Virus record (IMG/VR): IMGVR_UViG_3300032053_000685
Location: 1-20,020 of that record
Source of the DNA: a virus
Reading direction: 5' to 3' (one strand)
DNA length: 20,020 bases
Position numbers and translations under genes: made by a program. Below the pieces are notes generated by a model that did not search any database, had not been told where the DNA came from, and saw only the letters and a program-made list of their open reading frames with translations. Below are positions 941 through 18,454 of the stretch, piece by piece. Each line of letters starts with the position of its first letter. The stretch's first letter is position 1.

Positions 941-1975
941 CTACACCTCACACATTGCCAGCGCATCGGTCAGCGTGGGGGGTGCCCCGCCGTTGGTCAG
1001 TCCGAAGTAAGCAGTTTGCGCCCCTGACTTCGTGGCTGCAACACTGTACGCCCCCGCTGTGGCGTTCGCCGTTGGGTTGGGTGTAGTAGCCAGCCCGTTT
1101 ATGTCGGTGACCGCTGTCGCGGTGAGCGACGACGGGGGGAACGTGCAGGATGCCCCCGACGCAGGGGCAGTGAACAGAACACTCACTCCCGCCACGGGAT
1201 TGTTCAGGGCGTTCGCTGCCCGCGCCACCAGTGGCAACGCAAACGGGAACTGCGGGGCGACGGACTGGTTGTTGCCAGAGTAGGGAGACAGCGCGACAAC
1301 CACCTCCGGGTCTATCGTCGTAAACGATACGATGTTGCTGTTCGTGTGGTTGCCATACGCCACAGTGAGGTAGAACTGCCCCAGCACTGCACTGGCAGTG
1401 AGAATGGGGGACATTGCTACACCGCTGCCGTTGGTGGTCACGAAGCGCGAGAGAGAACCACCCCCGGGCCACGTTCCCCTACCGGAAGGAACCGTGAACC
1501 CTACTGCCTGCCCCGGCATCGTGTTTCCGAACTGGTCTTGGATCAGCACAGATACCGCGAGGTAGTTCGAGTTCTGCGCTGCCGACTGCACCCCATTGGT
1601 CTGCGCGGACATGTACGTGGGTACCGGTGGGTCTACGTTGGTGAGCGAGTACACGCCGTACACAGTACCCACAGCTACCGACTGCACTGCCCCCAACCAC
1701 GCTCCCGGTATGTTGTTCGTGTAGAGGTTGTTGAACCCGGTGAATCCACGCCCCGAAGAATCAGTGGTCGTGTAGTAGGGCGCGGGGGTGAACCCAGACA
1801 GAGCGAACCCACCACCCGGCTCCACCCCCTGCGGCAGCGACCATACTATCGGCTCGTTCGGCATACTGTTGCCGTTCTCGTCGCGCAAGTAACACACGAT
1901 TTCTGCCGTATAGGTGTTCAGCGACACCTGCTGGTTGTCGCCGCCTATGATCGTAAGGGTGGTGGGGGTAGGCAT
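941..1975 (-). CDS. Protein with three tandem bacterial Ig-like domains, 344 aa
   Basis: The whole protein reads as three repeats of about 110 residues of the invasin/intimin (Big_1-like) type. Each has a Q-x-x-S/A strand, a V/L-x-D-x-x-GN-x-M/V-x-x-x-x-V core, a T/D-G loop and a final strand. Examples are YLRDENGNSMPNEPIVWSLP (about 30-50), VLIQDQFGNTMPGQAVGFTV (about 145-165), and NALNNPVAGVSVLFTAPASG with TAVTDINGLATTPNPTA in the third. There is no signal peptide. Such domains on phage particles bind carbohydrates or cell surfaces weakly and often decorate tails. It begins just after the fibre stop (TGAAATG), with a weak GGTG SD. The last codons carry the SD (GAGGTG) for the following gene. 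Confidence 0.82.
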   Translation of the reverse strand: MPTPTTLTIIGGDNQQVSLNTYTAEIVCYLRDENGNSMPNEPIVWSLPQGVEPGGGFALSGFTPAPYYTTTDSSGRGFTGFNNLYTNNIPGAWLGAVQSVAVGTVYGVYSLTNVDPPVPTYMSAQTNGVQSAAQNSNYLAVSVLIQDQFGNTMPGQAVGFTVPSGRGTWPGGGSLSRFVTTNGSGVAMSPILTASAVLGQFYLTVAYGNHTNSNIVSFTTIDPEVVVALSPYSGNNQSVAPQFPFALPLVARAANALNNPVAGVSVLFTAPASGASCTFPPSSLTATAVTDINGLATTPNPTANATAGAYSVAATKSGAQTAYFGLTNGGAPPTLTDALAMCEV

Positions 1976-3605: not shown

Positions 3606-3611
3606 TCCTCT
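3606..3611 (-). promoter_or_regulatory. SD deciding start of the tail fibre gene
   Basis: AGAGGA lies six bases before the ATG at 3599 and overlaps the stop of the 530-aa gene. A longer in-frame reading from 3641 would start inside the previous gene and add residues unlike fibre N-termini, so 3599 is preferred. Confidence 0.75.
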
Positions 3612-5202
3612 ATTGGCCGAACATACGCGCCAAACCGGCATTGGTGGTGCCTGCCGTCAGGCGTTCAATCATTGCCGCTGCGGAAGGACTGATGGGCTTG
3701 CGGGACAGCGCGTTCCACAACGCGGCAGCGGTGCCAATGCCTGCGGCGGTGCCCAGCGTCGGGTTGGTGGCGAGCGCAGTCGCGCCCCCCATGCCCAGCG
3801 GTGCTCCCATCAACATACCGATGTAACCGGCCCGGTTCCAGCCGGTAGGTGGGTTGGTGATTGCCTGTGCGGACGCCTGACGTAACCGCTCCCCGGGCGT
3901 GCGGGCTACCTGATCTATGAAATCTGTGGCGGCGAGGGTGTTCTTCGGGAGAAGCTGCCCGGCGTCGCTTAGTCCCCTATCCGCAGACTTCAGCACATCC
4001 ATGAACGAGCCGTACTGGGCCTTCCACTGCTCGAACCCTGAGCGCATTGACGGGTTGGCAAGGACAAACGCATCGTCGTAAGCATCGCGGATCGCCCGAT
4101 ACGTCTCGCGCTCTGCGGAGTTGTCGGCGCTGTGCATGTTGTTTGTTGCGAATGACCGGCGCTTCATCAAGTCCTCGGCAGACAGCGCGTTAACCCCACC
4201 CCTCCGCTTGATGTCCTCCTTAAGAGCGTCCACCGCTTCGTCGAACTTGTTGAGCACGCCCTTCTGGCCCGTAGCCGCAAGGTTGTTGCCAATTTTATCC
4301 TTGGCGTCCCAAATATCAGAGATCACCTGAATCGCGTTGGAGTCCTTGCCGCTGTTGAACCCCGCCTTCATACGATCCAGCCGGTCAGCCATGTCAATGC
4401 GGGCCTGTCCCGTAAGTGCAGGCACCTCCATACCGGCGTTGCGTGTCTCGTTCCGCGTATGCCAATCCAAATTCTCGTGCCGATTGTTCCGCACCTTGGA
4501 CCCGAGGATCGGAATTTGCTCCAACGCATCCGACATTTGTTGGGGCAACCTCTCCCCGCTCTGCGTGCTGATGAGCGGACGGGGAAGCCCGCCTTCTTCC
4601 AAGATTTTCGCGTTCTCATTGCCGAACGGTGTTTGCTTGCGGAACGGCAGCGCGGCGCGGCCTGCTATTTGCCCGACACCTTCTGCGGCTGCACCTTGTA
4701 GAAAGCCTCTACCGGCTTCGTTCGCCAGATTGTAATTTTCCTTCGGCTCGAAAATGTTCAGGAGCGATCCGATGCCACCCTGCCGCGCTATCTGCGGAAT
4801 CATGCCCAGAGGCTTTCCAGCGGAGCCACCGGCCACGGCGAGGCCGAGGTCGGGCAGGAACTTCCCGAACGCACCGCCTGCGGTGTTGGACAGCGGCGCG
4901 TCGATGCGCTCCTTCTCGGCGGCTTGCTGCGACAACGCGGCCTCATCGCCCCACCCGAGCGACGCCGCCGCCTGCTGTGCCCCCAAGGTTGCGGACGGCC
5001 AGAATGACCCGAGTCCCTCCGCGAAACGCTGCATCGGGTGCCCGCTCGCCACCGGGCTGTATGTTGCCTTGTCCTGCTCGCGTTGCAGGTACGCCCTCCG
5101 CCCCGGGGTCACCGGGTCGAGCGGTATCTCTGGCACTCGGCTCCAGTCAATGCCCGACTCTGTGAGCGGGGGCACCTCGTCCCAGTTGATCCCGCTGGTC
5201 AT
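3610..5202 (-). CDS. Probable DNA ejection/internal virion protein 3, 530 aa
   Basis: This is a helical virion protein next to the two other ejection-like genes. It opens with two copies of a short motif, SGINWDEVP and SGIDWSRVP (residues 3-11 and 16-24). A Gly/Ala-rich region follows (about 95-180), with mildly hydrophobic segments such as PDLGLAVAGGSAGKPLGMIP. The central part is charged and helical (LDRMKAGFNSGKDSNAIQVI, DEAVDALKEDIKRRGG, RETYRAIRDAYDDAFV). Near the C-terminus (about 450-500) are candidate membrane-active helices (IGMLMGAPLGMGGATALA, LGTAAGIGTAAALWNAL), and it ends ARMFGQ. These traits fit a protein that inserts into the host envelope during ejection, but no homologue is certain from sequence reading. 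The stop TAG overlaps the SD of the tail fibre gene. Confidence 0.7.
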   Translation of the reverse strand: MTSGINWDEVPPLTESGIDWSRVPEIPLDPVTPGRRAYLQREQDKATYSPVASGHPMQRFAEGLGSFWPSATLGAQQAAASLGWGDEAALSQQAAEKERIDAPLSNTAGGAFGKFLPDLGLAVAGGSAGKPLGMIPQIARQGGIGSLLNIFEPKENYNLANEAGRGFLQGAAAEGVGQIAGRAALPFRKQTPFGNENAKILEEGGLPRPLISTQSGERLPQQMSDALEQIPILGSKVRNNRHENLDWHTRNETRNAGMEVPALTGQARIDMADRLDRMKAGFNSGKDSNAIQVISDIWDAKDKIGNNLAATGQKGVLNKFDEAVDALKEDIKRRGGVNALSAEDLMKRRSFATNNMHSADNSAERETYRAIRDAYDDAFVLANPSMRSGFEQWKAQYGSFMDVLKSADRGLSDAGQLLPKNTLAATDFIDQVARTPGERLRQASAQAITNPPTGWNRAGYIGMLMGAPLGMGGATALATNPTLGTAAGIGTAAALWNALSRKPISPSAAAMIERLTAGTTNAGLARMFGQ

Positions 5203-6785
5203 CACTGCACTCCTTCCGTCCCGTCAGAGTAGAGAACATACGTCTTGCCACCCTTGACAAGTTTTTTGACGATGGTCTTGCCGCCGCCTTCGCCGCCACC
5301 AACCCGTGCCTGCGCTGCCTGCTTGGCGACGTTGCTCTGGAACATGCGTGTGCGCTCGGCTTCCTTCAACATGCCCTTCAGGTTCGCCAGCACTTTCTCC
5401 GGCGGATCGGAAGGCTGCACGATGAACGGCGCAGCGCGACTTTGCTCGCCTGAGGTAAACGCCGACCCGTACAAATCGTGCGTAAGTTTAGCTGCGTGTT
5501 TAGCGAACTCCGAACGGGCTTGAATCTGCGCCTCGGTAAGGTTCTTGGCAGAGGCCCACACACCCAACGGGCCGGGAACCATGCCGAGGAGGGCACCACT
5601 CGACCCGAACGCGCCCTCGTTTGTTTCGGCCATCTCTAGCAGGCTTTTGATTGCGGAATGGTTCTCCATCGACGCCTGCACCTTGGCGACTTCCTTCTCC
5701 TTCGCCGCAACGGGCATGACCTCGCCAACAAACGGCGCTGCCTCCGGCCTGCCGTCTTCTCCCGCGCGGAACAGCGTGCCGTTGGGGGCGCGGTTCACCG
5801 GGCGTCCAGTAACTACATCATAACCTTGCAACGTAGTATGTTCCACCGGAGGAGATTTCCCCGCTGCCAACGCTTCCTTGAGAGCATACATCTGCTCCAT
5901 CTTGTTAATGTCGTTGGCAGCTTTGTATTCAAGCATCTGCTCCTTGAATATGCGGTCACGCTCTTTCTCCGACGCGGATTCCATTTGCTTCAGCGCAAGC
6001 TCATGCCTGCGATTGGACGCAAGTTCAGCAGCCTGTTCCTTCTTCGCCGCGATTGCTTCCGCCGCGAGGCGTGCTTTCTCCGGCGCGGCGATGGCGGTGT
6101 CCAACGCCTTCTCGGCCACCTTGGCGTGCATGGGCGAGAACGCCGCGCCCTTCGCGGCCCACTTCGCCATGTCTCCAATCTTCGCCGGGATCATCGGCGT
6201 CGCGGCGCGGTTCGGCACGAAGTCCTGTGGTGCCTGCGGGACCATCGGTGCGGCGGGGGCCGGTTCCAACGGTTGCATCTGTGAGTCCGCGAGCGCCATG
6301 GGAGCACCCGTCTCCATGTTGATCGCAGCGTCCTGCGCCAGTTTGTCCTGCTGCGCCGCCCGTGCGCTCATCCAATTTTGCACGTGCTGGTCTTGGTCGT
6401 ACTCGACCCCGGGCGTGTTGGGCGGCGGCGCGATGGGGCCAGTGCCCTGCACGCCGGGGTCAGCGGGGGTGTCGGTGGGCATCTGCCCCAACCACTCGTC
6501 TGCCGCTGCGCTTCGCCGCTGCGCGATGTCCTGAAGCTGCGCGTCCATCTCCGGCTGCGCGAGGGCATTTAGCCCCTGCGAGACGGCGGGGCCAAGCTGC
6601 GCGTAGTACGGGTTCACCCAATGAGCGCCCCTGTAGCCGCTGTCAACCGCCGGTTGGTTCGCAAGTTGCTGCATCAGCGCCCGCTTGCGGGCAATTGCTA
6701 TCTGCTCCTCATCGAAGCTCCCCGGCATGGAAGTCGAGGACTGCGACGGGTTGTACCCGAACGACCCTGAGTTGTTGAACGCCAT
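5202..6785 (-). CDS. Probable DNA ejection/internal virion protein 2, 527 aa
   Basis: This is a large helical protein in the ejection-protein position. The N-terminus is Ser/Gly/Asn-rich (MAFNNSGSFG) followed by DEEQIAIARKRALMQQLANQ, a pattern I recall in podovirus DNA-transfer proteins. Residues about 105-190 are Pro/Ala-rich linker. Residues about 215-308 are a strong coiled coil (KARLAAEAIAAKKEQAAELA, KEQMLEYKAANDINKMEQMY). The C-terminal domain holds GMVPGPLGVWASAKNLTEAQ and TSGEQSRAAPFIVQ with a final Lys/Gly-rich segment. No enzymatic motif is apparent. The ATG follows the preceding stop by one base, with AAGGTGA six bases upstream. Such proteins are packed in the head or tail and injected ahead of DNA to build a trans-envelope channel; that role is inferred from context. 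Confidence 0.72.
   Translation of the reverse strand: MAFNNSGSFGYNPSQSSTSMPGSFDEEQIAIARKRALMQQLANQPAVDSGYRGAHWVNPYYAQLGPAVSQGLNALAQPEMDAQLQDIAQRRSAAADEWLGQMPTDTPADPGVQGTGPIAPPPNTPGVEYDQDQHVQNWMSARAAQQDKLAQDAAINMETGAPMALADSQMQPLEPAPAAPMVPQAPQDFVPNRAATPMIPAKIGDMAKWAAKGAAFSPMHAKVAEKALDTAIAAPEKARLAAEAIAAKKEQAAELASNRRHELALKQMESASEKERDRIFKEQMLEYKAANDINKMEQMYALKEALAAGKSPPVEHTTLQGYDVVTGRPVNRAPNGTLFRAGEDGRPEAAPFVGEVMPVAAKEKEVAKVQASMENHSAIKSLLEMAETNEGAFGSSGALLGMVPGPLGVWASAKNLTEAQIQARSEFAKHAAKLTHDLYGSAFTSGEQSRAAPFIVQPSDPPEKVLANLKGMLKEAERTRMFQSNVAKQAAQARVGGGEGGGKTIVKKLVKGGKTYVLYSDGTEGVQ
5210..5215 (-). promoter_or_regulatory. SD deciding start of the 530-aa gene
   Basis: AAGGAG lies seven bases before the ATG at 5202 and only four bases before an adjacent in-frame GTG at 5205. 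The two starts differ by one residue. The ATG has the better spacing and shares its first base with the stop of the preceding gene. Confidence 0.55.
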
Positions 6786-6786
6786 G

Positions 6787-8187
6787 TCAGTTCACCTTCG
6801 AGTAATCGACCATGAGGTAGCCTGCCATCCCTCGGCTCACCGCTTCAGGCAGCGTTTGTTGGAGTTCCTGCGCCATCACGCCGCGCTCGCGCCGACCGGC
6901 GATGTCGTACTCGTAGAAGCTGTGACCCCCCGGCGTCTTGCCGAGCGCGACGATGTTGCTCTTGAGTCGCCGGTCGCTGCCGAGAGAGCCCCCCGCCGCC
7001 CCGCCGATTTTCGCGCCGACCGACGCCCCCATCGGTCCGCCAAAGTACGCGCCGAGAACACCCCCCGCTATCGTGCCGATACCGGACCCGATGCCTGCAC
7101 GCCCGGCGTTCTTCGCGTTGGCGGCGTCAAGCTGTGCTTGATACCCCTTCTGTGCCGCACCTACAGCGTCGCCCGTGTTGTACACTCCCATGTTGCCTTG
7201 ACCGATGTTGAAGTTGGCCGAGTCTGGTTGCGACAGGCTGTTGTAGCCCATCAACTCGGCCCACTGCTGCGCCCGGGAGCGGTCTTCGTGCGCCAGTTGC
7301 GCGGAGGCGGACGCTGTGCTCGCGCCGATGCTCGCCGACTGAATCTGCGCGTTCGCTGCGGTTTCTTGTCCGTGCTGAGTAAGCCACTGGCCCGCACCTT
7401 GACCTTGCGCGGCGTTGTGGAACGCGCCCAGCGTATCCACTTCGCTCTTTCCTTGGTTCCTGAGTTGCAGAATCATGTTCTGCAACCGCTCTTGCTCCGC
7501 GCCGCCGCCCGTAATGGCGTCGTTACGCGCACCCGCGTAGGCGCGTTCCTTCGCTTGGTTCATTATCTGCATGGCGTTGTTGAACGCCGGAGTGCCGGGG
7601 ACCAGACCCTTGTTGGCAAGCTGTGTCTCAAGGGAGCGCTGCTGCTCTGCGTACTGCGGGTCCAGATACCCCGTCTGCCGCTTGTAGAGGGCGTCCTGCA
7701 CCTGCTGGCGCTCTGCCGTAGTGTCTCCCGGCATCGGGGACAGCTTGGAGTAGTCCAAGTCCCTCTGGATGTCCTTGTTGACAGGGGACGGTCCTTCGGC
7801 CGAACCGCCACCGCCGCCACCGCCGCCACCGCCGCCACCGTACCCGTAACTACTGATCATACCGCCACCACCGCCACCACCACCGTACCCGCCGTAGTAT
7901 TGATTGGCGAACTGCCCTGCGGCAGTGTTCCCCATCTGCCCATACTTGAGGCGAAGGTCGGCGTTCTGCTCGTAAATAGGTTGTTCAGTGGGGCCGAATG
8001 AAGTTTTGTTAGTCACCTTCCCAGTAGCGGGGTCTGTAACCCACTCGTTGCTGGACCCAGTGGGCCCGACCTGCGTGTAGCGGTTTGCGTTCATCACATC
8101 AGTAGCGGCCTGCTTGTTCAAACCCGCTTGTTGTGTGTTGAGCGCCGCGTAATCGGGGGCGGCTGGCGTCTTGGCTTTCTTACCCAT
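6787..8187 (-). CDS. Ejection-type virion protein with C-terminal S74-like domain, 466 aa
   Basis: Domains in order: a polar N-terminal region (1-98); a glycine tract (residues about 99-128, with runs of eight and twelve Gly split by MISSYGY); a helical Gln/Ala-rich region (about 140-350); a glycine-zipper-like hydrophobic segment (IGSGIGTIAGGVLGAYFGG and onward, about 365-400); and a C-terminal peptidase S74-like intramolecular chaperone (404-466). The last begins SDRRLKSNI, containing the Ser and Lys expected for self-cleavage, and continues GVMAQELQQTLPEAV and VDYSKVN. S74 domains assist trimerisation of spikes and fibres and then cleave off, but here the domain is short and lacks the long C-terminal helix. 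Position before two other ejection-like proteins and the glycine zipper suggest a membrane-contacting ejection or tail-tip protein. The stop is one base before the next ATG. Confidence 0.78.
   Translation of the reverse strand: MGKKAKTPAAPDYAALNTQQAGLNKQAATDVMNANRYTQVGPTGSSNEWVTDPATGKVTNKTSFGPTEQPIYEQNADLRLKYGQMGNTAAGQFANQYYGGYGGGGGGGGMISSYGYGGGGGGGGGGGGSAEGPSPVNKDIQRDLDYSKLSPMPGDTTAERQQVQDALYKRQTGYLDPQYAEQQRSLETQLANKGLVPGTPAFNNAMQIMNQAKERAYAGARNDAITGGGAEQERLQNMILQLRNQGKSEVDTLGAFHNAAQGQGAGQWLTQHGQETAANAQIQSASIGASTASASAQLAHEDRSRAQQWAELMGYNSLSQPDSANFNIGQGNMGVYNTGDAVGAAQKGYQAQLDAANAKNAGRAGIGSGIGTIAGGVLGAYFGGPMGASVGAKIGGAAGGSLGSDRRLKSNIVALGKTPGGHSFYEYDIAGRRERGVMAQELQQTLPEAVSRGMAGYLMVDYSKVN
7804..7893 (-). 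repeat. Glycine-codon repeat tract
   Basis: The coding strand has near-perfect GGN glycine repeats in two blocks. The plus strand shows a nine-base period CCACCGCCG repeated about four times (about 7806-7841) and a looser ACCGCC block further on. Slippage by multiples of three would keep the frame and change linker length. Confidence 0.85.
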
Positions 8188-8614
8188 GAGTATCTCCAAT
8201 GAATCGGCAGTTCTTCTTCCACAGCACCATTAGGATGAGATCGCCTGACGGCATCGCCCCGCGCAACACTGCTTCGTTCTGAAACCCAAAATGTTCATTG
8301 AGCCTGCGTGCATCGCTGTTACTTGCTTCCACCTGAGCAGTGATCCGTTCCACTCCAAGGCGAACAAACGGGTAGTGAAAAATCGCATGGAGAAAAGTCC
8401 GAGTCATCCACCTTTTGCCGGGAATTCCGGCAATGTGCGCGAAGATGTTCGGTCCCGTGTAGTTCTCGTAGACCACCCCCGCTATGATCTCGCCACCTCT
8501 CTCCAGCCCCACTGCCGTGTGGTTTGCCCACCCCTCTGTTTCCAACAACCTTGCACAAAAGTCGCTGACCCGACCCCTGTCTGTTGTGAGCCTAAACCGT
8601 GCCACCGAGTTCAT
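8180..8614 (-). CDS. GNAT-family N-acetyltransferase, 144 aa
   Basis: This is a GCN5-related acetyltransferase encoded inside the tail operon. The typical order is present: an N-terminal strand ARFRL and helix GRVSDFCARLLETEG, the strand GEIIAGVVYENY, a core strand FAHIAGIPG followed by helix RTFLHAIFHYPF, then GVERITAQVEASNSDARRLN and EHFGFQNEAVLRGAMP, ending in the strand DLILMVLW. The N-D/A-x-x-A/R-R-x-x-E-x-x-GF arrangement resembles RimJ/RimL-like acetyltransferases. The canonical acetyl-CoA loop (Q/R-x-x-G-x-G/A) is replaced by PGKRWMTR, as in phage relatives I recall. An upstream in-frame ATG exists at 8650, but 8614 gives the smaller overlap with the preceding gene. The SD is weak, so the start is uncertain. 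Its substrate is unknown; virion or host protein N-termini are possibilities. Confidence 0.85.
   Translation of the reverse strand: MNSVARFRLTTDRGRVSDFCARLLETEGWANHTAVGLERGGEIIAGVVYENYTGPNIFAHIAGIPGKRWMTRTFLHAIFHYPFVRLGVERITAQVEASNSDARRLNEHFGFQNEAVLRGAMPSGDLILMVLWKKNCRFIGDTHG
8194..8197 (-). promoter_or_regulatory. SD deciding start of the S74-domain protein
   Basis: GGAG lies six bases before the ATG at 8187. A longer reading would begin at a TTG (8199) that is itself part of this SD, so 8187 is preferred. The gene then overlaps the acetyltransferase stop by eight bases. Confidence 0.6.
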
Positions 8615-10190
8615 ACACAAAATCCGTTGCGGCCCAAAGTGTCTCCACATCCTGCGCCACTACCATGTGCATTGCCGCCGCGTAGCCCATTCCCTCGACA
8701 CTCTGCCACCGACGGTAACGCCCGTACCGCACGTCCCACTTTGCCGCGTCCCAAATCGCTTGGTCCCAAATGTAATCTTCCGACGGTTGGGGTATCACGC
8801 TGGGTGCCAAAGGCTCGACCACCTCGAAGTCCACTTCCAGTTTTATCGCAGACGCGGGGACCGCCCCCGCCTGAAATATCGGGCGCACCATCGTCCATCG
8901 TTTCGTTATTCCCATCGACTGGAAGTAGTTGTACGCCGTGACCACCTCCAACTCAATCCGATCACCAATCGTCTCGTTCCACGGCACGTTGTCGAAGTAC
9001 CCAGTCCACGCCTGACACATACGCCCGTCTTTGGTGATGAAGTACGGACTGAGGCCGATCAGGCACGAGGACTGTATGTCCATGTTCGTGAACTGACACC
9101 ACGCGCCAGTGATCGTGTTCATTGCGTAGACCGTCACGCCGCCCTGATCCGCAGGTATGGGCACGACAATCCAAATCTGATTCTCGTTGGGAAAAAGCAG
9201 CATTTCCCACCCCACCTTATCGTAGTGCTCAGAAATCAACGAACTGATCGTATGTTGAATCTTGTCGGTGAGGTTGTCTGCTGTGTTGACCTTCGTACTC
9301 TGAAAAGCCCTCGACAATGGTTCTGCGCCGTTCGCCGTGAGCAAAATGAGATCGCCGCCGTAGCTCACACCGCAGCGACGGCCCACGGGAGCGCCCAGAC
9401 GGATCACACCCTCCAAGCCCCACGAAGCCGCGTCTTCCGGGTCAGTACCGCTGTAGACTGCGATCTCTCCGTTGCTGGAAATGAACACCAACTTATCGTT
9501 CATCCCGTCGCCAGAGTCGCCAGCCCACGTGTAGATCGCCATGAGGTAGCCGCCGAACTTGAATAGCTGACCGACCTCGAACGGTTGCGCCACACCACCA
9601 AGCTGATCCACCGGCAGAAACCACGCCTGCGTGCTGTTCTTCTGCACAAACCACAAACGCCTCTGATGCACGGCCACATCAACAAACGTTTTCGGGTCAA
9701 TACCGGAAATGTCGAACCCGGCGGGGGGCGGGGTCAGGTCTTCGAGCACCGTGGTGAACGCCACGCCGTTGTATATACGCGGACTGTCCACCCCGTTCAC
9801 GCAGTAGAGGTAGTTACCGCCCACGTTGCAAAACATCGTGGTCTGCCAGTAATCGCTCAACATACCGGTGATGCTGGCAGTGGGTGCTGGCCCGGTGGAG
9901 GTGATGACATACACCTTCCCTCCGGTGAACGCGATGACTGTCGGCGTCCCAGAAATGGGGCTGAACTCCGCGATGGTGGGGTTGGTGCCACTGGTCATCC
10001 CAACCACACGTTCTTTCCACCCTTGCCGCATGGTCAAGGCATAGGGGAACGGAAACCAGTTCTTCAACACAATCGCGTCCGTGGGCGGCATTGCCGCCAC
10101 ACTATCCCGAGCGTTCAACCCCCCAACAGGCGCAGGGACGCTGGCCGTCTTGATGACGGCACGACGGGGAGTGTTCAGCCACGGGTTCAT
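8592..10190 (-). CDS. Nozzle / packaged-DNA stabilisation-like protein, 532 aa
   Basis: This protein probably forms the distal tail nozzle or DNA-retaining hub, in the place of P22 gp10 or T7 gp12. The N-terminal segment APVGGLNARDSVAAMPPTDA with LKNWFPFPYALTMRQGW is a hallmark of this podovirus group. The body is a run of beta-rich repeats with aromatic and Gly turns, suggestive of a beta-propeller: for example IAEFSPISGTPTVIAFTGGK, KLVFISSNGEIAVYSGTDPE and RRCGVSYGGDLILLTANG. No membrane segment or enzyme motif is evident. It overlaps the 250-aa gene by four bases (ATGA). Its 3' end overlaps the acetyltransferase start by about 23 bases. Assignment is by context and family resemblance; exact fold and stoichiometry are inferred. 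Confidence 0.78.
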   Translation of the reverse strand: MNPWLNTPRRAVIKTASVPAPVGGLNARDSVAAMPPTDAIVLKNWFPFPYALTMRQGWKERVVGMTSGTNPTIAEFSPISGTPTVIAFTGGKVYVITSTGPAPTASITGMLSDYWQTTMFCNVGGNYLYCVNGVDSPRIYNGVAFTTVLEDLTPPPAGFDISGIDPKTFVDVAVHQRRLWFVQKNSTQAWFLPVDQLGGVAQPFEVGQLFKFGGYLMAIYTWAGDSGDGMNDKLVFISSNGEIAVYSGTDPEDAASWGLEGVIRLGAPVGRRCGVSYGGDLILLTANGAEPLSRAFQSTKVNTADNLTDKIQHTISSLISEHYDKVGWEMLLFPNENQIWIVVPIPADQGGVTVYAMNTITGAWCQFTNMDIQSSCLIGLSPYFITKDGRMCQAWTGYFDNVPWNETIGDRIELEVVTAYNYFQSMGITKRWTMVRPIFQAGAVPASAIKLEVDFEVVEPLAPSVIPQPSEDYIWDQAIWDAAKWDVRYGRYRRWQSVEGMGYAAAMHMVVAQDVETLWAATDFVYELGGTV

Positions 10191-10939
10191 GGCCCTGTCG
10201 GTCCAGTGTTCCAGTTACCATCACTGATGTTCCACGGACCAATGTAAATCGGCGACACACGCGGGGATAGCGATAGCCGAGGAGCGCCCTGATTGCGGCT
10301 CATCGCTTGGTTGAACATGATGTCAAAGTCGTTCTGCAACGCAGTAGTGTCGAATCCCTTGATCTGCCACAGCTTCAACTTGATCCCGTTGATCATCATG
10401 CGGGTGTTGAACATACACGTGGCAGCATCCGAGATTGCGGACTGTGCAGTGTTCCCGTCCTCATCGACCACCCACCCATTCGCGTAGTACATGAAGTCGA
10501 GTGTGAAGGGGACAAACACATTGCCACCCGTTACTGTCGGGGTCGGGAACAGTTCGACGGTATCGTTGATGTAGCGGTAGCGCAGGCGTGGGCCGAGCGC
10601 GACGATGCCGCTCTTGAGCGTTTGCCACTGCTGCGGAGTGGCCTGCCCGATGAGTGACCAGTGGTTCGTGCGGTCCCACTCTGTCTGGTCTATGGGACCG
10701 GCCCAGTCAGCGGGTAGAGGGTACGCCTCTTGGTTCTGTACCGTGGTCAGCGAAAAGTGCTTTTCGAGTTCCTTCCACCGATACTTTTCGTAGAGTTCTT
10801 GCCCGAGAGCGTTCCACAGACCGAAGATTTGCTGGCCGGTGGAGTCGCTCGCTTGAGCTACAGTATCTACTACCGGAAGACCAAGTTCACGCAGGGCCGA
10901 TTGGCATTGTTGGAGAATCGTCGGTTGCGGGTACGCCAT
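10187..10939 (-). CDS. Head-tail adaptor / tail tube A-like protein, 250 aa
   Basis: This is likely the connector that extends the portal channel after packaging (position of P22 gp4 or T7 gp11). The N-terminus (ILQQCQSALRELGLP, then DSTGQQIFGLWNALGQEL and YRWKELEKHFSLTT) is helical. It is followed by EAYPLPADW and EWDRTNHWSLIGQATPQQWQ with LKSGIV, a combination I recognise from podovirus proteins placed between capsid and nozzle genes. The C-terminal third is mixed, ending in a Gly/Asn/Pro-rich tail (GNWNTGPTGP). The ATG is preceded by AGGAG at six bases, overlapping the stop of the 59-aa gene, and the stop overlaps the next start as ATGA. Functional assignment rests on gene order plus remembered family resemblance; the structural class (gp4-like or gp11-like) is not settled by sequence alone. 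Confidence 0.72.
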   Translation of the reverse strand: MAYPQPTILQQCQSALRELGLPVVDTVAQASDSTGQQIFGLWNALGQELYEKYRWKELEKHFSLTTVQNQEAYPLPADWAGPIDQTEWDRTNHWSLIGQATPQQWQTLKSGIVALGPRLRYRYINDTVELFPTPTVTGGNVFVPFTLDFMYYANGWVVDEDGNTAQSAISDAATCMFNTRMMINGIKLKLWQIKGFDTTALQNDFDIMFNQAMSRNQGAPRLSLSPRVSPIYIGPWNISDGNWNTGPTGP

Positions 10940-14472: not shown

Positions 14473-14796
14473 TTAGTTTCCTATTCTTCGGTTGGAGCCA
14501 CGTTGAACCGCCTTATCGGCGAATTCCCATAACCGCTCTCTCAACGCTTGGCGGTCTTTTGGGTCTTTTTGCGGAGCCTTGCGAACCTCGTCCCCCTTCT
14601 CGAAGGGAACGACGTTGTGCTTTCGCATGTGCTCGTAGTAGGCGCGCTTCCCCTCGACCACGGTTCCGTCAAGGGGTGAAACAAACGCTGGTATGTCTCC
14701 ATGCACCACTGGGAAATCGGAACTCCCCTCATCAACATAGATCACCTCCACCATTTCTTTAAGCGCGGGGTCGTAGCGGAATCTTCTGCGGGACAT
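14473..14796 (-). CDS. Conserved small phage head protein, 107 aa
   Basis: This small charged protein lies between portal and scaffold. It begins with a basic segment (MSRRRFRYD) and an MVEV strand. It continues with DIPAFVSPLDGTVVEGKRAY followed by YEHMRKHNVVPFEKGDE, a pattern I associate with short proteins found between portal and scaffold in podovirus-type genomes. No catalytic motif or membrane segment is visible. The start shares one base with the portal stop (TGATG), and a strong GGAGG sits seven bases upstream inside the portal C-terminal codons, so it is probably translated by coupling. It ends one base before the scaffold start. Its biochemical role is unknown; head assembly or portal association is inference from position. 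Confidence 0.8.
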   Translation of the reverse strand: MSRRRFRYDPALKEMVEVIYVDEGSSDFPVVHGDIPAFVSPLDGTVVEGKRAYYEHMRKHNVVPFEKGDEVRKAPQKDPKDRQALRERLWEFADKAVQRGSNRRIGN

Positions 14797-17240
14797 CAGT
14801 CGTCCTCCCCTTCCTTCTTCTCTTTGGCCGCGGACTCTTTCTGCTCCAACTCTGCGTCGGCGGCTTCCGCTTGTTGCTCCTGTCCGGCTTCGTGGGCTTG
14901 CGCCTGCTGCTCCATCGTCTGCGCGTGCTGCTGCGTCTTGATCTCACCGTCGATCTGCGCGGTCTGCACCTTCACGGCGGCGTCGGTCTGCGCGGCCTGC
15001 TGCTTCAGCGCGAATTCTTCCCGCATGAATTGCAGCTTGAGGTCGAACTCGCGCTCCTTGAATTGGAGGTCGAGCGCGTGCTCGCGCTCCTTGAACGCGA
15101 GGTCTTGCTGCTGCTCGCGCTCCTTCATCTGCATCTCGGCGGCGTCGGCGGCCTGCTTGGCCTGCTGATCCTGCTGCTTCATCGCCATCTCGGCCTGCAT
15201 CTTCTCGCCTTCCATCTTAGCCTTCACCATCGCCGGATCGGGCTTCTCGGGCGGCGGGCCTTGCTGCGCCATCTGCGAGATGGATTGTTCGATCACGCCT
15301 TCTATGTCGCGTCCGATCTTGTAGCCGCGCACTGACCAGAGCGTGACTTGCGCGATCATCGGAGCCAACTCCGGCATCTTCTCTATGGCTGGCACTGCTT
15401 GTTGCATCAGGAACCCGAAGTTCTGCATGAACTCGTTACGCGCTTCCTTTTCTTCCTTGTCGTCCGCCTTGGTGATGGAGTCCACCGACACACTGATCTT
15501 GTGCTGAATCAGCTTGCCATCCTTGACGAGTTGCACCGCTGCCGGGACATACTGGAAGTCCGGTCCCGCCGGGTCTTGCAGATCAGCGTTGACGATCAGC
15601 GTCTCCGGCTGGAAGAAGTTCACCATGATTTGCGCGGCCTTGTTGATGAGGTCGCTGGCGAACCGCGCGATGTCTTTCTGGGTGTCGTTGATGCGTATGT
15701 TGGCGAACTTCTCCTTGATGGACTGCGCGGTGGCCGTCTCCGAGGCCACGCTCGCACCACGCACGATGTCCGCAATGCCAGTGATCTCGTAAACGTCCTG
15801 CTTCACCACACCGCGAGCGTTGATGAGCCGTTCGAGTACGTTCATCACCATTTCGACGGGGAAGAAATCGACCACGCCCTTCAACCCGCCGCGCTCCGCG
15901 AACATCGCCCAGTTGTCCACCGGGATCATCGTGTTATCGACGCCCTCCGTCAAAAGCCTCTGCACCGCATCTTGAGTCTTGTCGTAGACGCCGATAACTT
16001 TGAGGGCCTGCGTAAGCAGGGAAATGCGATTGGTAATCTGATCCAGTTCCGTCGCTTGATCCTGATACATGCAGTAGTCGGGAAGCGGGATCGTGGAGTC
16101 ATTAGTAGTTGTTGCAAGAAGCGGCTTCGGACACGGAAAAAATTCGTCCAACTGAAACAGATCGTCCCGCTCGTCAAGGATTTCCGGGTGGTCTTCGCAA
16201 AGCCAATACACCTTGAGGTCATCTTTGCTCCAAATTTCCCAGATTGCAGCCTTCTTCAACACGCCGAGGCCGGGGCCGAACTCCTGATTGCCGCCGCTGC
16301 CCGCGTTGCTCGCCTTCTGCGTGGAAGCCGCTTCCGCGTAATTGAGCGGCACGTTATTGAACGCTTCCCCGAACCGCTTGACGCCGCTTGCGCGGGTCAT
16401 AAACACGCGCCGCGCCACCCACGTACATTCCTCCCATGTCCGTGACGGCGACATACGGAAGTCCTTCCAATGCACGTAGTCGAAGCACACCTTCTCGCCG
16501 GAGATGACGCCGGATTCGTAGCTGTCGTCCGTCACCGCCTTGTTCTGCAACTCCTTGGGCTGCGGCGGCGTGCGCGGCGGCTGCGGCGTGGGCGTCGGTT
16601 GCCCGAGCATCGGCAGCGGCCCCGGCGGCAGCGCCGTGGTGCCGGGAGGCAGGGGAGCCGGGGATGCGCCGGGCATGGCCGCGCCGGTCCCCCCTCCGGC
16701 TTGCACGGAAGTTGGTGGTACGGGTGTTTCCGGTGCCCCCGGCAAAGGATCGGGGCGGTTCTCGTACATGGGCGTGAGGTCGGCAACATACCGAACCCAC
16801 GCCGTGCCGCGTCCGGGGATCAGTCGGTCCTCGACGCAGGCGTTCATCGTGGCGTCGAATTGCGAGTGTTCGCAGACTGTGAACTCCAAGTTGCGCTCCA
16901 GAATGGCGGCGGCAACCCGGTTTACTTGATTGGTGGTGTCGAAACGGCGGCTAACCTCCGGCTTCGGGGGCTTGGCGTAGACCGCAGGCTTCAACGTCTG
17001 GACGTTCGACCAGAGTATGTTGAACTTCCGGTCCTGATCGTCGATGGAATCGCGCTCGTCACGGTATCGCTTGACGGTTTTCTCGGCCCGCTTGACGAAA
17101 CTAGCCTCGCTGCGCTTGGCCGAGTCAAGTTCCGCCTTCCATCGCTTTGCCTGACCCTCTTTGCCTTCGCCAAAATCGGAAACTTGATCAACAGACGCGC
17201 CTGCGCCGGAGGGCGACTCACTATTTGCTTGCGGATTCAT
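14796..17240 (-). CDS. Portal protein, 814 aa
   Basis: The portal forms the dodecameric channel at the unique capsid vertex and docks the terminase. Recognisable features are the N-terminal segment NILWSNVQTLKPAVY (about residues 74-88) followed by KPPKPEVSRRF, a signature of large podovirus-type portals, and a long central region with WEIWSKDD and VYEITGIADIVRGA (around residues 330-500). The length of 814 aa is at the long end; P22 gp1 is about 725 aa. Two extras stand out: a Pro/Gly-rich, probably disordered insert at residues about 165-229, and a C-terminal tail of about 140 residues rich in Gln, Ala and Glu that is predicted coiled coil, with four 11-residue repeats at residues 703-746. 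The start overlaps the preceding stop (ATGA), and a GGGGG lies a few bases upstream. The stop TGA shares its A with the next ATG. Confidence 0.88.
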   Translation of the reverse strand: MNPQANSESPSGAGASVDQVSDFGEGKEGQAKRWKAELDSAKRSEASFVKRAEKTVKRYRDERDSIDDQDRKFNILWSNVQTLKPAVYAKPPKPEVSRRFDTTNQVNRVAAAILERNLEFTVCEHSQFDATMNACVEDRLIPGRGTAWVRYVADLTPMYENRPDPLPGAPETPVPPTSVQAGGGTGAAMPGASPAPLPPGTTALPPGPLPMLGQPTPTPQPPRTPPQPKELQNKAVTDDSYESGVISGEKVCFDYVHWKDFRMSPSRTWEECTWVARRVFMTRASGVKRFGEAFNNVPLNYAEAASTQKASNAGSGGNQEFGPGLGVLKKAAIWEIWSKDDLKVYWLCEDHPEILDERDDLFQLDEFFPCPKPLLATTTNDSTIPLPDYCMYQDQATELDQITNRISLLTQALKVIGVYDKTQDAVQRLLTEGVDNTMIPVDNWAMFAERGGLKGVVDFFPVEMVMNVLERLINARGVVKQDVYEITGIADIVRGASVASETATAQSIKEKFANIRINDTQKDIARFASDLINKAAQIMVNFFQPETLIVNADLQDPAGPDFQYVPAAVQLVKDGKLIQHKISVSVDSITKADDKEEKEARNEFMQNFGFLMQQAVPAIEKMPELAPMIAQVTLWSVRGYKIGRDIEGVIEQSISQMAQQGPPPEKPDPAMVKAKMEGEKMQAEMAMKQQDQQAKQAADAAEMQMKEREQQQDLAFKEREHALDLQFKEREFDLKLQFMREEFALKQQAAQTDAAVKVQTAQIDGEIKTQQHAQTMEQQAQAHEAGQEQQAEAADAELEQKESAAKEKKEGEDD
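15003..15134 (-). repeat. Four hendecad (11-aa) repeats in the portal tail
   Basis: Four consecutive 33-bp units encode MQMKEREQQQD, LAFKEREHALD, LQFKEREFDLK and LQFMREEFALK. The DNA also repeats: the plus-strand string CTCGCGCTCCTTGAA recurs nearly unchanged at about 15048, 15079 and 15113. An 11-residue period fits a straight or right-handed helical barrel or coiled coil, consistent with a portal barrel extension. Confidence 0.8.
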
Positions 17241-18454
17241 CTGCTACCCCCGTATGGGCCTGATTGTTGTAGAAGCTGTTCGATCATTTCGGCGATCTTC
17301 GGCGCTTTCTTGTCGCTGGCGTTGAAGGGGTCGTACTCCGTCGTCGGAATCCCACGCCGCTCAAATTCGTCGCGCACATACTGCGTTGCTAGCGGGGTGC
17401 GCCCTGTGTCGTTCACCGCCTGTCTGGGGAACGCCGCCGCACCGATAGTCTCAGCGTTCAGCGGGAGCGGGCCTGTGGACTTCCATTCGGAGTACGCGGC
17501 GGGCGCACGGCGCAGATCGGTCAACAAATCCTGCGCCACGGGGTCGGTTTTCCCCGCCGCGTGACGCAGCGCCCGCATCGTCCACGACCCGCTCTTGGCA
17601 TCGGGGCCGATCAGCTTGTCGGCCATGAGGTTGCTCCACACTCCTTTCGGCTGCATCTCTGCCCATTCCAGCAGGTCTTTTTCAAACCCCTTGCCCCATT
17701 GAGTAGGTGTGAGCGCGTGGTCCAACACACCGGCCCCGGCGCGGCTGTTTTCGTAGTCCCGAAGTGACTGGAAGGAGGGTGATGCTTCGATAGCCAGCAT
17801 CTGCGCCAGAGATTTCGGGGTTGTGCCCTCTTTAAGTCGCAAATCGCGTGTGTCGAACTTCTGCCCCAAGCGCCCGCTTGGATAGTCGAGAGCCGGGGCC
17901 AACTCCCTGCCGCGCAGCGTGTAAACGTCGCGGTTGGTGAGGATGCCGCCGCGATTCTCCGGCCCCATGCCCAAACGTGGACTGAGAATCACCGAGTCGC
18001 CTGTCGTCATCGGAATTCGTGTGTTCCGCTGCCGAATGGCGAAACTGGGGCTCGACAATTCGTTGAAAACCTTCATGTCGGGGCCGACGAGGTGCGTCGC
18101 GTCCGACAGCGCATGGGTCATTTGCAAGTGCGGCAAGCCACCGGGGCGAATCGCCCCGATCAGGCCGAGGGCTTTGGCACCGGTTTTCATCGGGGGGCCG
18201 AGCATCTCGCCGAAAGTGCCCATCGTAGATGACTCTGGTGCGCCGCCCATCATGGCGTCGGCGTAGGCGCGGCCCTTGTCGGCCACGCCGGAATAATACT
18301 TGCCATACTCGTCGCGGGTGGGGGTCCAGTTGGCGGCGGTGTTGATGAGGCCCATCGCTTCGCCGGGCATCGCCGCGACGCCACGCACGGCCCCTTTGGC
18401 GGTGTCTTTGACCCCCGCCCAGATGCGGGCGAGTTCGTCGTCGTCGGGTGTCAT
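17237..18454 (-). CDS. Phage protein of unknown function, 405 aa, between terL and portal
   Basis: This protein is unusually placed, between the terminase and the portal. The N-terminal 100 residues are Gly/Ala/Met-rich, with amphipathic or mildly hydrophobic stretches (DTAKGAVRGVAAMPGEAMGL; GPPMKTGAKALGLIGAI). Residues about 105-185 carry the most distinctive part: GGLPHLQ, then NELSSPSFAI, TGDSVILSPRLG and ILTNRDVYTLRGRELAP. This arrangement (an L-S/A-x-PS-x-A/G-I strand, a GD-x-x-L/ILSP strand, then an acidic/aromatic stretch) recalls domains I have seen in large polyvalent or co-injected phage proteins. The resemblance is from memory and does not establish an enzymatic activity. The C-terminal half is helical and charged. 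The start at 18454 is supported by a GGGAG seven bases upstream and an ATGA overlap with the preceding stop. Its stop overlaps the portal start in another ATGA. A virion-packaged effector or ejection protein is my best guess. Confidence 0.8.
   Translation of the reverse strand: MTPDDDELARIWAGVKDTAKGAVRGVAAMPGEAMGLINTAANWTPTRDEYGKYYSGVADKGRAYADAMMGGAPESSTMGTFGEMLGPPMKTGAKALGLIGAIRPGGLPHLQMTHALSDATHLVGPDMKVFNELSSPSFAIRQRNTRIPMTTGDSVILSPRLGMGPENRGGILTNRDVYTLRGRELAPALDYPSGRLGQKFDTRDLRLKEGTTPKSLAQMLAIEASPSFQSLRDYENSRAGAGVLDHALTPTQWGKGFEKDLLEWAEMQPKGVWSNLMADKLIGPDAKSGSWTMRALRHAAGKTDPVAQDLLTDLRRAPAAYSEWKSTGPLPLNAETIGAAAFPRQAVNDTGRTPLATQYVRDEFERRGIPTTEYDPFNASDKKAPKIAEMIEQLLQQSGPYGGSR

What the first reader, a model, noticed from the sequence alone, without database searches (positions are those of the whole stretch)
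6787..7150. S74-like self-cleaving domain attached to a glycine-zipper segment
S74 chaperones normally end fibres or spikes. Here a short version (SDRRLK to VDYSKVN, 63 residues) follows a glycine-zipper hydrophobic stretch in a protein located with ejection proteins. One reading is that the domain keeps a membrane-active region soluble or organises trimers until virion assembly, then releases it.
Basis: partly seen in the sequence, partly recalled or inferred. Interest (0 to 1): 0.5.

Follow-up and report, generated by a model that had tools for sequence, protein, structure and literature searches.

The report
Self-cutting cap on DNA-injection protein
A protein that a short-tailed virus of bacteria probably injects with its DNA carries, right after a greasy glycine-rich tail, a tiny version of a known self-cutting chaperone; several relatives without it stop about where the cut would fall, so it is probably a removable cap, but no cut has been shown.

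Summary
Window 6787-8187 (-) encodes a 466-aa protein whose last 63 residues match Pfam Peptidase_S74 above its cutoff (27.2 vs 22 bits), directly after a glycine zipper (11 GxxxG; 5.6 in shuffles). Gene order puts it at the P22 gene 7 (DNA-ejection) position. It is not unique: the arrangement recurs in three PHROG families. In 79 dereplicated sequences the Ser, Asp and Lys of SDxxxK never vary. Homologues without the domain exist (12 of 80 loci in one scan); nine distinct ones stop a median of 16 residues after a GGLF landmark, the distance at which Ser stands in 72 S74-bearing ones. P22 gp7 and a Kuravirus injection protein likewise end in bare glycine zippers. I read the domain as a self-removing C-terminal cap on a membrane-active tail. 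Against this, it lacks helices alpha1 and alpha4, and the alpha4 leucine zipper is needed for cleavage of the relative MYRF; natural S74-less forms show that it is dispensable; cleavage and trimers could not be tested. The domain is already in GenBank notes; ten searches of an open-access library showed me no paper on it. New variant of a known kind.

The parts
6787..8187 (-). CDS of the 466-aa virion/ejection-position protein (phrog_6121), P22 gene 7 position
   Evidence: ORF; ATG with GGAG upstream; phrog_6121 E 2.3e-32 over residues 6-469 of the 470-aa ORF; synteny
6790..6978 (-). Short Peptidase_S74 domain, Ser404-Asn466, 63 residues, without alpha1 and alpha4
   Evidence: PF13884 above cutoff; AF2 pLDDT about 90 or more; profile hits to 6f45, 7dc3, 3gud
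6976..6978 (-). Ser404 codon, predicted nucleophile (cut before it)
   Evidence: S invariant in 79 of 79 dereplicated sequences; equivalence to the MYRF/endoNF Ser by the SDxxxK motif and PMC8326128
6961..6963 (-). Lys409 codon, predicted general base
   Evidence: K invariant in 79 of 79
6979..7098 (-). Glycine-zipper hydrophobic segment, residues 364-403
   Evidence: 11 GxxxG against 5.6 shuffled; pLDDT under 50 over model residues 366-399
8180..8650 (-). GNAT-like protein, P22 gp14/IVPA position
   Evidence: phrog_4470 E 9e-41; the phiGT1_16 note links the syntenic gene to P22 gp14
8592..10190 (-). Tail tube B / P22 gp10-like protein
   Evidence: phrog_5107 E 5.7e-112, named 'amidase' there; phiGT1 synteny
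10187..10939 (-). Tail tube A / gp4-like adaptor
   Evidence: PF24175 SU10_adaptor 36.8 bits, cutoff 27; phrog_6013
5202..6785 (-). Protein at the position of the second ejection protein (P22 gp20)
   Evidence: position only; no Pfam or PHROG hit, no tblastn match
3610..5205 (-). Protein at the position of the third ejection protein (P22 gp16)
   Evidence: position only; no Pfam or PHROG hit, no tblastn match
14796..17240 (-). Portal protein
   Evidence: phrog_12082 E 3.7e-166; tblastn hits in 10 phage records, Mx8 and Mx9 among them

Best explanation
The protein is the first ejection protein of a P22-like (Mx8 branch) short-tailed phage. Its working C-terminus is a glycine-zipper hydrophobic tail (inferred to enter or line the membrane part of the ejection channel). 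The 63-residue S74 domain is a self-removing C-terminal cap: it keeps the hydrophobic tail covered after synthesis, then its Ser404-Lys409 dyad cuts at Gly403|Ser404 when the protein oligomerises during assembly, leaving the bare zipper that S74-less relatives have from the start. Shown: domain, dyad, zipper, gene order, S74-less relatives ending at about the same point. Inferred: cleavage, timing, trigger, membrane role.
For: S, D and K of SDxxxK invariant in 79 of 79 dereplicated sequences from 131 and, in a sample fetched with the N-terminal part only, in 45 of 45 dereplicated from 68; no dyad-dead S74 was seen there. 12 of 80 loci of that scan lack S74, none cut by a contig end, none with an S74 match (E 0.01) in the next 600 nt. 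GGLF to Ser: median 16, range 6-28, n=72; GGLF to C-terminus in S74-less: median 16, range 11-21, n=9. On a tree of the rest of the protein 14 of 104 rows lack S74 and need 9 changes. The most hydrophobic 16-mer ends within 12 aa of Ser in 155 of 158 S74-bearing sequences (redundant set) and within 12 aa of the C-terminus in 12 of 15 S74-less; in P22 gp7 it is the last 16 residues. A Kuravirus injection protein of phrog_4287 matches that profile only to position 321 of 392 and ends in a bare glycine zipper, while phrog_4287 proteins of 7-11, LAh_9 and BUCT695 carry S74. MYRF is cleaved by the same dyad without the upstream Arg of fibres.
Against: Helix alpha4 is absent (median 6 residues after VDY, 4 in the window) and the model has a strand pair where alpha1 would be. 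In MYRF cleavage needs a trimer and the alpha4 leucine zipper: a zipper mutant still oligomerised but was not processed, so contacts made elsewhere may not be enough. Dyad invariance equals that of other columns (9 of 62 invariant), so it may be structural. S74-less relatives show the cap is dispensable. Ends at a domain boundary are also what plain module gain or loss would give. Three of 15 S74-less sequences (L004, and one contig seen twice as L100 and L173) do not have their most hydrophobic 16-mer at the C-terminus. The window's closest non-identical homologue (L004, 54-56% identical) lacks S74.
Confidence: 0.5

Rival explanations
1. The S74 domain is not cut. It stays as a small folded cap or docking domain on the ejection protein in the virion, for instance binding the portal or neighbouring ejection proteins, and leaves with it.
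For: Both classical trimer helices are missing and MYRF needs the alpha4 zipper to cut; the domain is predicted with confidence in a single chain.
Against: Ser and Lys are among the invariant columns in 79 of 79; S74-less relatives end about at the scissile position and would lack such a docking domain.
Confidence: 0.3
2. The domain is a folding or oligomerisation chaperone like that of fibres, and its chief task is to bring three subunits together; cutting is secondary or absent.
For: Sequence family S74; the MYRF and T5 pb1 domains are trimers (passages of PMC8326128 and PMC4690869).
Against: alpha1 and alpha4, which strengthen and drive the MYRF trimer, are absent; the model has a mostly helical body and an unstructured zipper before the domain, not a beta-helix; relatives do without the domain.
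Confidence: 0.12
3. It is a mobile leftover of a fibre gene, attached by recombination and kept without a function.
For: Repeated gain or loss (9 changes) and a dispensable domain.
Against: Nine invariant columns including the dyad among 45 dereplicated sequences; presence in three protein families; no S74 remnant found downstream of the 12 S74-less genes.
Confidence: 0.05

Closest known systems
Peptidase_S74 / intramolecular chaperone auto-processing (ICA, CIMCD) domain of endosialidase K1F, T5 pb1, GA-1 neck appendage
   Same: Pfam profile, Ser-Asp...Lys, core motif GVxAQEV..PEAV, C-terminal place
   Different: No alpha1, no alpha4 coiled coil, no upstream triple beta-helix in the model; sits on a protein at an ejection position; four longer S74s found in records that also hold a short one seem to have both helices (by eye)
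MYRF ICA domain (PDB 7dc3)
   Same: Ser-Lys dyad, cut independent of an upstream Arg, an aromatic pair that the alignment places like MYRF Y615/Y617 (inferred), link to a membrane segment
   Different: MYRF keeps the alpha4 leucine zipper and needs it; its membrane segment lies after, not before, the domain
P22 gp7 (phrog_598), DNA ejection protein
   Same: Gene position after gp14, C-terminal glycine zipper; proteins of PAE2, H6/1, 199E37-1 and Vibrio phage 1.090.B with a phrog_598 match carry the same short S74
   Different: No S74; known processing is N-terminal, by the host protease OpdA; the window protein has no phrog_598 hit
phrog_6121 'virion structural protein' (Mx8 p54, phiGT1_17) and phrog_4287 'DNA ejection protein'
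   Same: Both PHROG profiles end in the S74 region; phiGT1_17 carries a GenBank note on PF13884
   Different: The window protein is a distant phrog_6121 member with long poly-glycine tracts

Membership tests
Pfam Peptidase_S74 (PF13884) | Profile score above the curated cutoff | tested here: met
   27.2 vs 22 bits
Pfam Peptidase_S74 (PF13884) | Ser and Lys five residues apart (SDxxxK) | tested here: met
   Ser404, Lys409; invariant in 79 of 79
S74 / ICA auto-processing chaperone (functional class) | C-terminal alpha4 coiled-coil helix | tested here: not met
   4 residues after VDY in the window; median 6 in the family, longest 24 in BUCT555; only 3-4 helical residues there in AF2
S74 / ICA auto-processing chaperone (functional class) | alpha1 helix between SDxxxK and the first core strand | tested here: not met
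   AF2 gives strands 53-61 and 67-73 there; a model, not a structure
S74 / ICA auto-processing chaperone (functional class) | Fold match to solved ICA structures | tested here: inconclusive
   7dc3_B rank 3, Z 3.2, rmsd 2.2 A, 49 residues, 29% identity, among unrelated kinases; Foldseek PDB none at E <= 0.001; predicted viral structures: best hit an ICA-named protein, E 5.4e-6
S74 / ICA auto-processing chaperone (functional class) | Trimer | not testable with these tools
   only single-chain prediction was on offer
S74 / ICA auto-processing chaperone (functional class) | Self-cleavage before Ser | not testable with these tools
   needs protein
phrog_6121 virion structural protein | Full-length profile match | tested here: met
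   E 2.3e-32, profile 5-387 of 392
P22 gp7 family (phrog_598) | Profile match | tested here: not met
   no phrog_598 hit up to E 0.1 for the window protein; P22 gp7 itself scores 320 bits
P22 gp7 family (phrog_598) | Gene order gp4-gp10-gp14-gp7-gp20-gp16 | tested here: met
   same order of positions, the last two by position only, and no gene between the gp10-like and GNAT genes where P22 has its tail needle

The most novel reading that the evidence does not exclude
A distinct minimal class of S74, stripped of both trimer-forming helices, is a self-cutting C-terminal cap for the glycine-zipper tail of first ejection proteins in several podovirus lineages, with the cut triggered in trans by oligomerisation of the ejection protein itself rather than by fibre folding.
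Probability: 0.35. Interest if true: 0.7.

Novelty: new variant of a known kind. Interest (0 to 1): 0.5.

Why it matters
How ejection proteins of short-tailed phages hide their membrane-active parts until infection is, as far as I know, open. A removable cap with a known dyad gives a one-residue test (Ser404 or Lys409), and the S74-less relatives are natural controls. If true it would take S74/ICA auto-processing beyond fibres and MYRF, and show whether a domain without its coiled coil can still cut.

Tried and rejected
phmmer of the whole protein against PDB sequences gave no S74 structure; the three alignments shown are low-complexity glycine-linker matches; ignored. tblastn at E 1e-5 in phages gave no match; at E 10 it gave the S74 and backbone hits used later. 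A profile of 16 C-termini was too diverse for the search for related loci. Foldseek against PDB gave nothing at E <= 0.001; no solved fibre S74 appears in the VIA list, which excludes nothing. A tree of the S74 domain alone (68 columns, 85 rows; backbone labels partly assumed) is unresolved, so exchange of the domain between backbones is inconclusive. SU10 virion mass spectrometry (passages of PMC4281155) is no test: a Kuravirus relative, EcoN5, lacks S74, and SU10 itself was not checked. A Citrobacter podovirus paper (PMC4925675, passages) mentions endosialidase only for a K1F fibre. One search counted 10 changes with L213 wrongly filed as S74-less; one search corrects this to 9 (starred branches force 7 of the 10, and the S74-less label is clustered, 1 of 500 shuffles as low).

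The 158 and 15 include repeated contigs and only proteins of 200 aa or more. The 72 and 9 are sequences with a GG[LM]F landmark, distinct by segment. The 79 are 131 sequences dereplicated at 80% identity, found partly through the domain; 3 of 134 rows had no S74. Sequences cut by a contig end were left out. Identical rows were dropped from the tree.

Full report
What is there. The window is a 20,020-base virus record. The protein of interest runs from an ATG at 8187, with GGAG upstream, to the stop at 6787 on the minus strand, 466 aa. Its last 63 residues, Ser404 to Asn466, match Pfam Peptidase_S74 at 27.2 bits against a cutoff of 22. The 40 residues before Ser404 hold 16 glycines and 11 GxxxG motifs; shuffles average 5.6 and 1 of 5000 reaches 11. 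Over its whole length the protein matches phrog_6121, 'virion structural protein' (E 2.3e-32).

Setting. Gene order on the minus strand is portal, two proteins taken by position for scaffold and capsid, gp4-like adaptor, gp10-like tube B, GNAT protein, S74 protein, two large proteins, fibre-like protein. P22 has portal, scaffold, coat, 4, 10, 26, 14, 7, 20, 16, and the authors of phiGT1 equate the GNAT protein with P22 gp14 (note; legend in PMC10386132, passages seen). The S74 protein therefore stands where P22 gp7 stands. This is positional: the window protein has no hit to the gp7 family phrog_598, and the two proteins after it matched nothing in Pfam, PHROGs or the phage collection.

How common. 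The same architecture occurs in phiGT1, Mx8, Rhizobium, Sulfitobacter and Microcystis phages (phrog_6121), in Salmonella phage 7-11 and Aeromonas phages LAh_9 and BUCT695 (phrog_4287, 'DNA ejection protein'), and on a phrog_598 (P22 gp7 family) N-terminal part in PAE2, H6/1 and Vibrio phages 199E37-1 and 1.090.B. Of 48 virus records searched with PF13884, nearly all chosen because they had yielded a relative, 46 have a match; the two without are P22 and ppBjS10J. One of the 46, Vibrio phage 1.090.B, gave only another, longer S74 protein; its short domain was not listed there. It has been annotated (phiGT1 note; 'peptidase_S74 domain-containing structural protein' in a Rhizobium phage; 'putative ejection protein', pfam13884). 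Five paper searches that paired S74 or chaperone terms with ejection, injection or DNA-transfer terms and the other five showed me no paper that discusses it; I saw listings, and passages of eleven papers; only open-access papers are in that library.

A stripped S74. From Ser to the C-terminus the family has a median of 67 residues (61-89, n=79), with a median of 6 after the VDY motif (n=78); BUCT555 with 24 is the longest and may keep part of a helix. The AF2 model of the window's C-terminus (61 sequences) has the S74 part at pLDDT about 90, with strands 53-61, 67-73 and 76-80, helix 83-89, two short strands and a four-residue helix, and an unstructured zipper; the full-length model agrees and puts a mostly helical body before the zipper (mean pLDDT 68, pTM 0.32). 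In MYRF alpha4 forms the coiled coil and alpha1 a collar (PMC8326128, passages and section 7). Neither is seen here. Four longer S74s in records that also hold a short one have 89-127 residues from Ser and, by eye, sequence for both helices.

The dyad. Ser, Asp and Lys are invariant in 79 of 79 dereplicated sequences. Because that set was found partly through the domain, I took a second sample with the N-terminal part only: 68 of 80 carry S74, and in 45 dereplicated ones Ser, Asp and Lys are again invariant, among 9 invariant of 62 columns. The MYRF family is likewise strict for S, D, K and a G (PMC3742443, passages); the G of GVMAQE here is 78 of 79 (that it is the same G is inferred).

The natural experiment. 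Twelve of the 80 loci lack S74; all have complete reading frames and none has an S74 match in the next 600 nt. They end in or just after the hydrophobic GGLF segment. Measured from the GGLF landmark, S74-bearing proteins reach Ser after a median of 16 residues (6-28, n=72) and S74-less ones reach their C-terminus after a median of 16 (11-21, n=9). On a tree of the rest of the protein 14 of 104 rows lack S74, needing 9 changes. L198 sits among S74-bearing near relatives, and sequence alignable with the start of their next gene follows closely after its stop. L004, the nearest non-identical relative of the window protein, also lacks the domain, as do ctMlz233 and ppBjS10J, the latter with a longer tail. 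P22 gp7 ends in a zipper whose last 16 residues are its most hydrophobic. The EcoN5 injection protein matches phrog_4287 to position 321 of 392 and stops in a glycine zipper, while 7-11, LAh_9 and BUCT695 go on into S74.

Reading. A form without the cap exists in nature, and it ends about where a cut would leave the capped form. With an invariant dyad this favours a cap that takes itself off. P22 data fit in outline: gp7 is present in about 12 copies, binds procapsids through residues 21-154, is released during DNA delivery, and is trimmed at its other end (PMC8402733 and PMC4992974, passages). The main difficulty is that MYRF needs its alpha4 zipper to cut, and a zipper mutant oligomerises without cutting (PMC3742443, passages). 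If the short form cuts, contacts from the ejection protein must stand in. I put the cap reading at 0.5.

Novelty. The domain and the host protein family are known; the helix-less form as a conserved cap on glycine-zipper ejection proteins, with S74-less natural controls, I did not find described in the searches named. New variant of a known kind.

Noticed in passing
window 7804-7839 and 7861-7884 (-): Two poly-glycine tracts (Gly12, residues 117-128, and Gly8, residues 102-109) inside the ejection-position protein; L004 has a milder Gly/Ser-rich version.
   Followed up: no
window 941-1975 (-): 344-aa protein with three Big_1 bacterial Ig-like stretches (PF02369, 54.5 bits) beyond the fibre gene.
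   Followed up: no
window 3610-5205 (-): The protein at the gp16 position has its own Gly/Ala-rich hydrophobic stretch near the C-terminus (by eye), a second candidate membrane-active segment.
   Followed up: no
window 17237-18454 (-): 405-aa protein between terminase and portal with no Pfam or PHROG hit.
   Followed up: no
window 8592-10190 (-): phrog_5107 is named 'amidase' but the syntenic phiGT1 gene is annotated as tail tube B (P22 gp10-like); the PHROG name is probably wrong.
   Followed up: partly
L007 5839-7194: Stenotrophomonas phage BUCT555 homologue keeps 24 residues after the VDY-like motif, perhaps a remnant of alpha4.
   Followed up: no
L012 5767-6768: Mx8 p54 has the S74 core but a divergent end where others have VDY.
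   Followed up: no
L015 2871-5285: Roseobacter phage CRP-738 has the short S74 on a much longer 804-aa protein.
   Followed up: no
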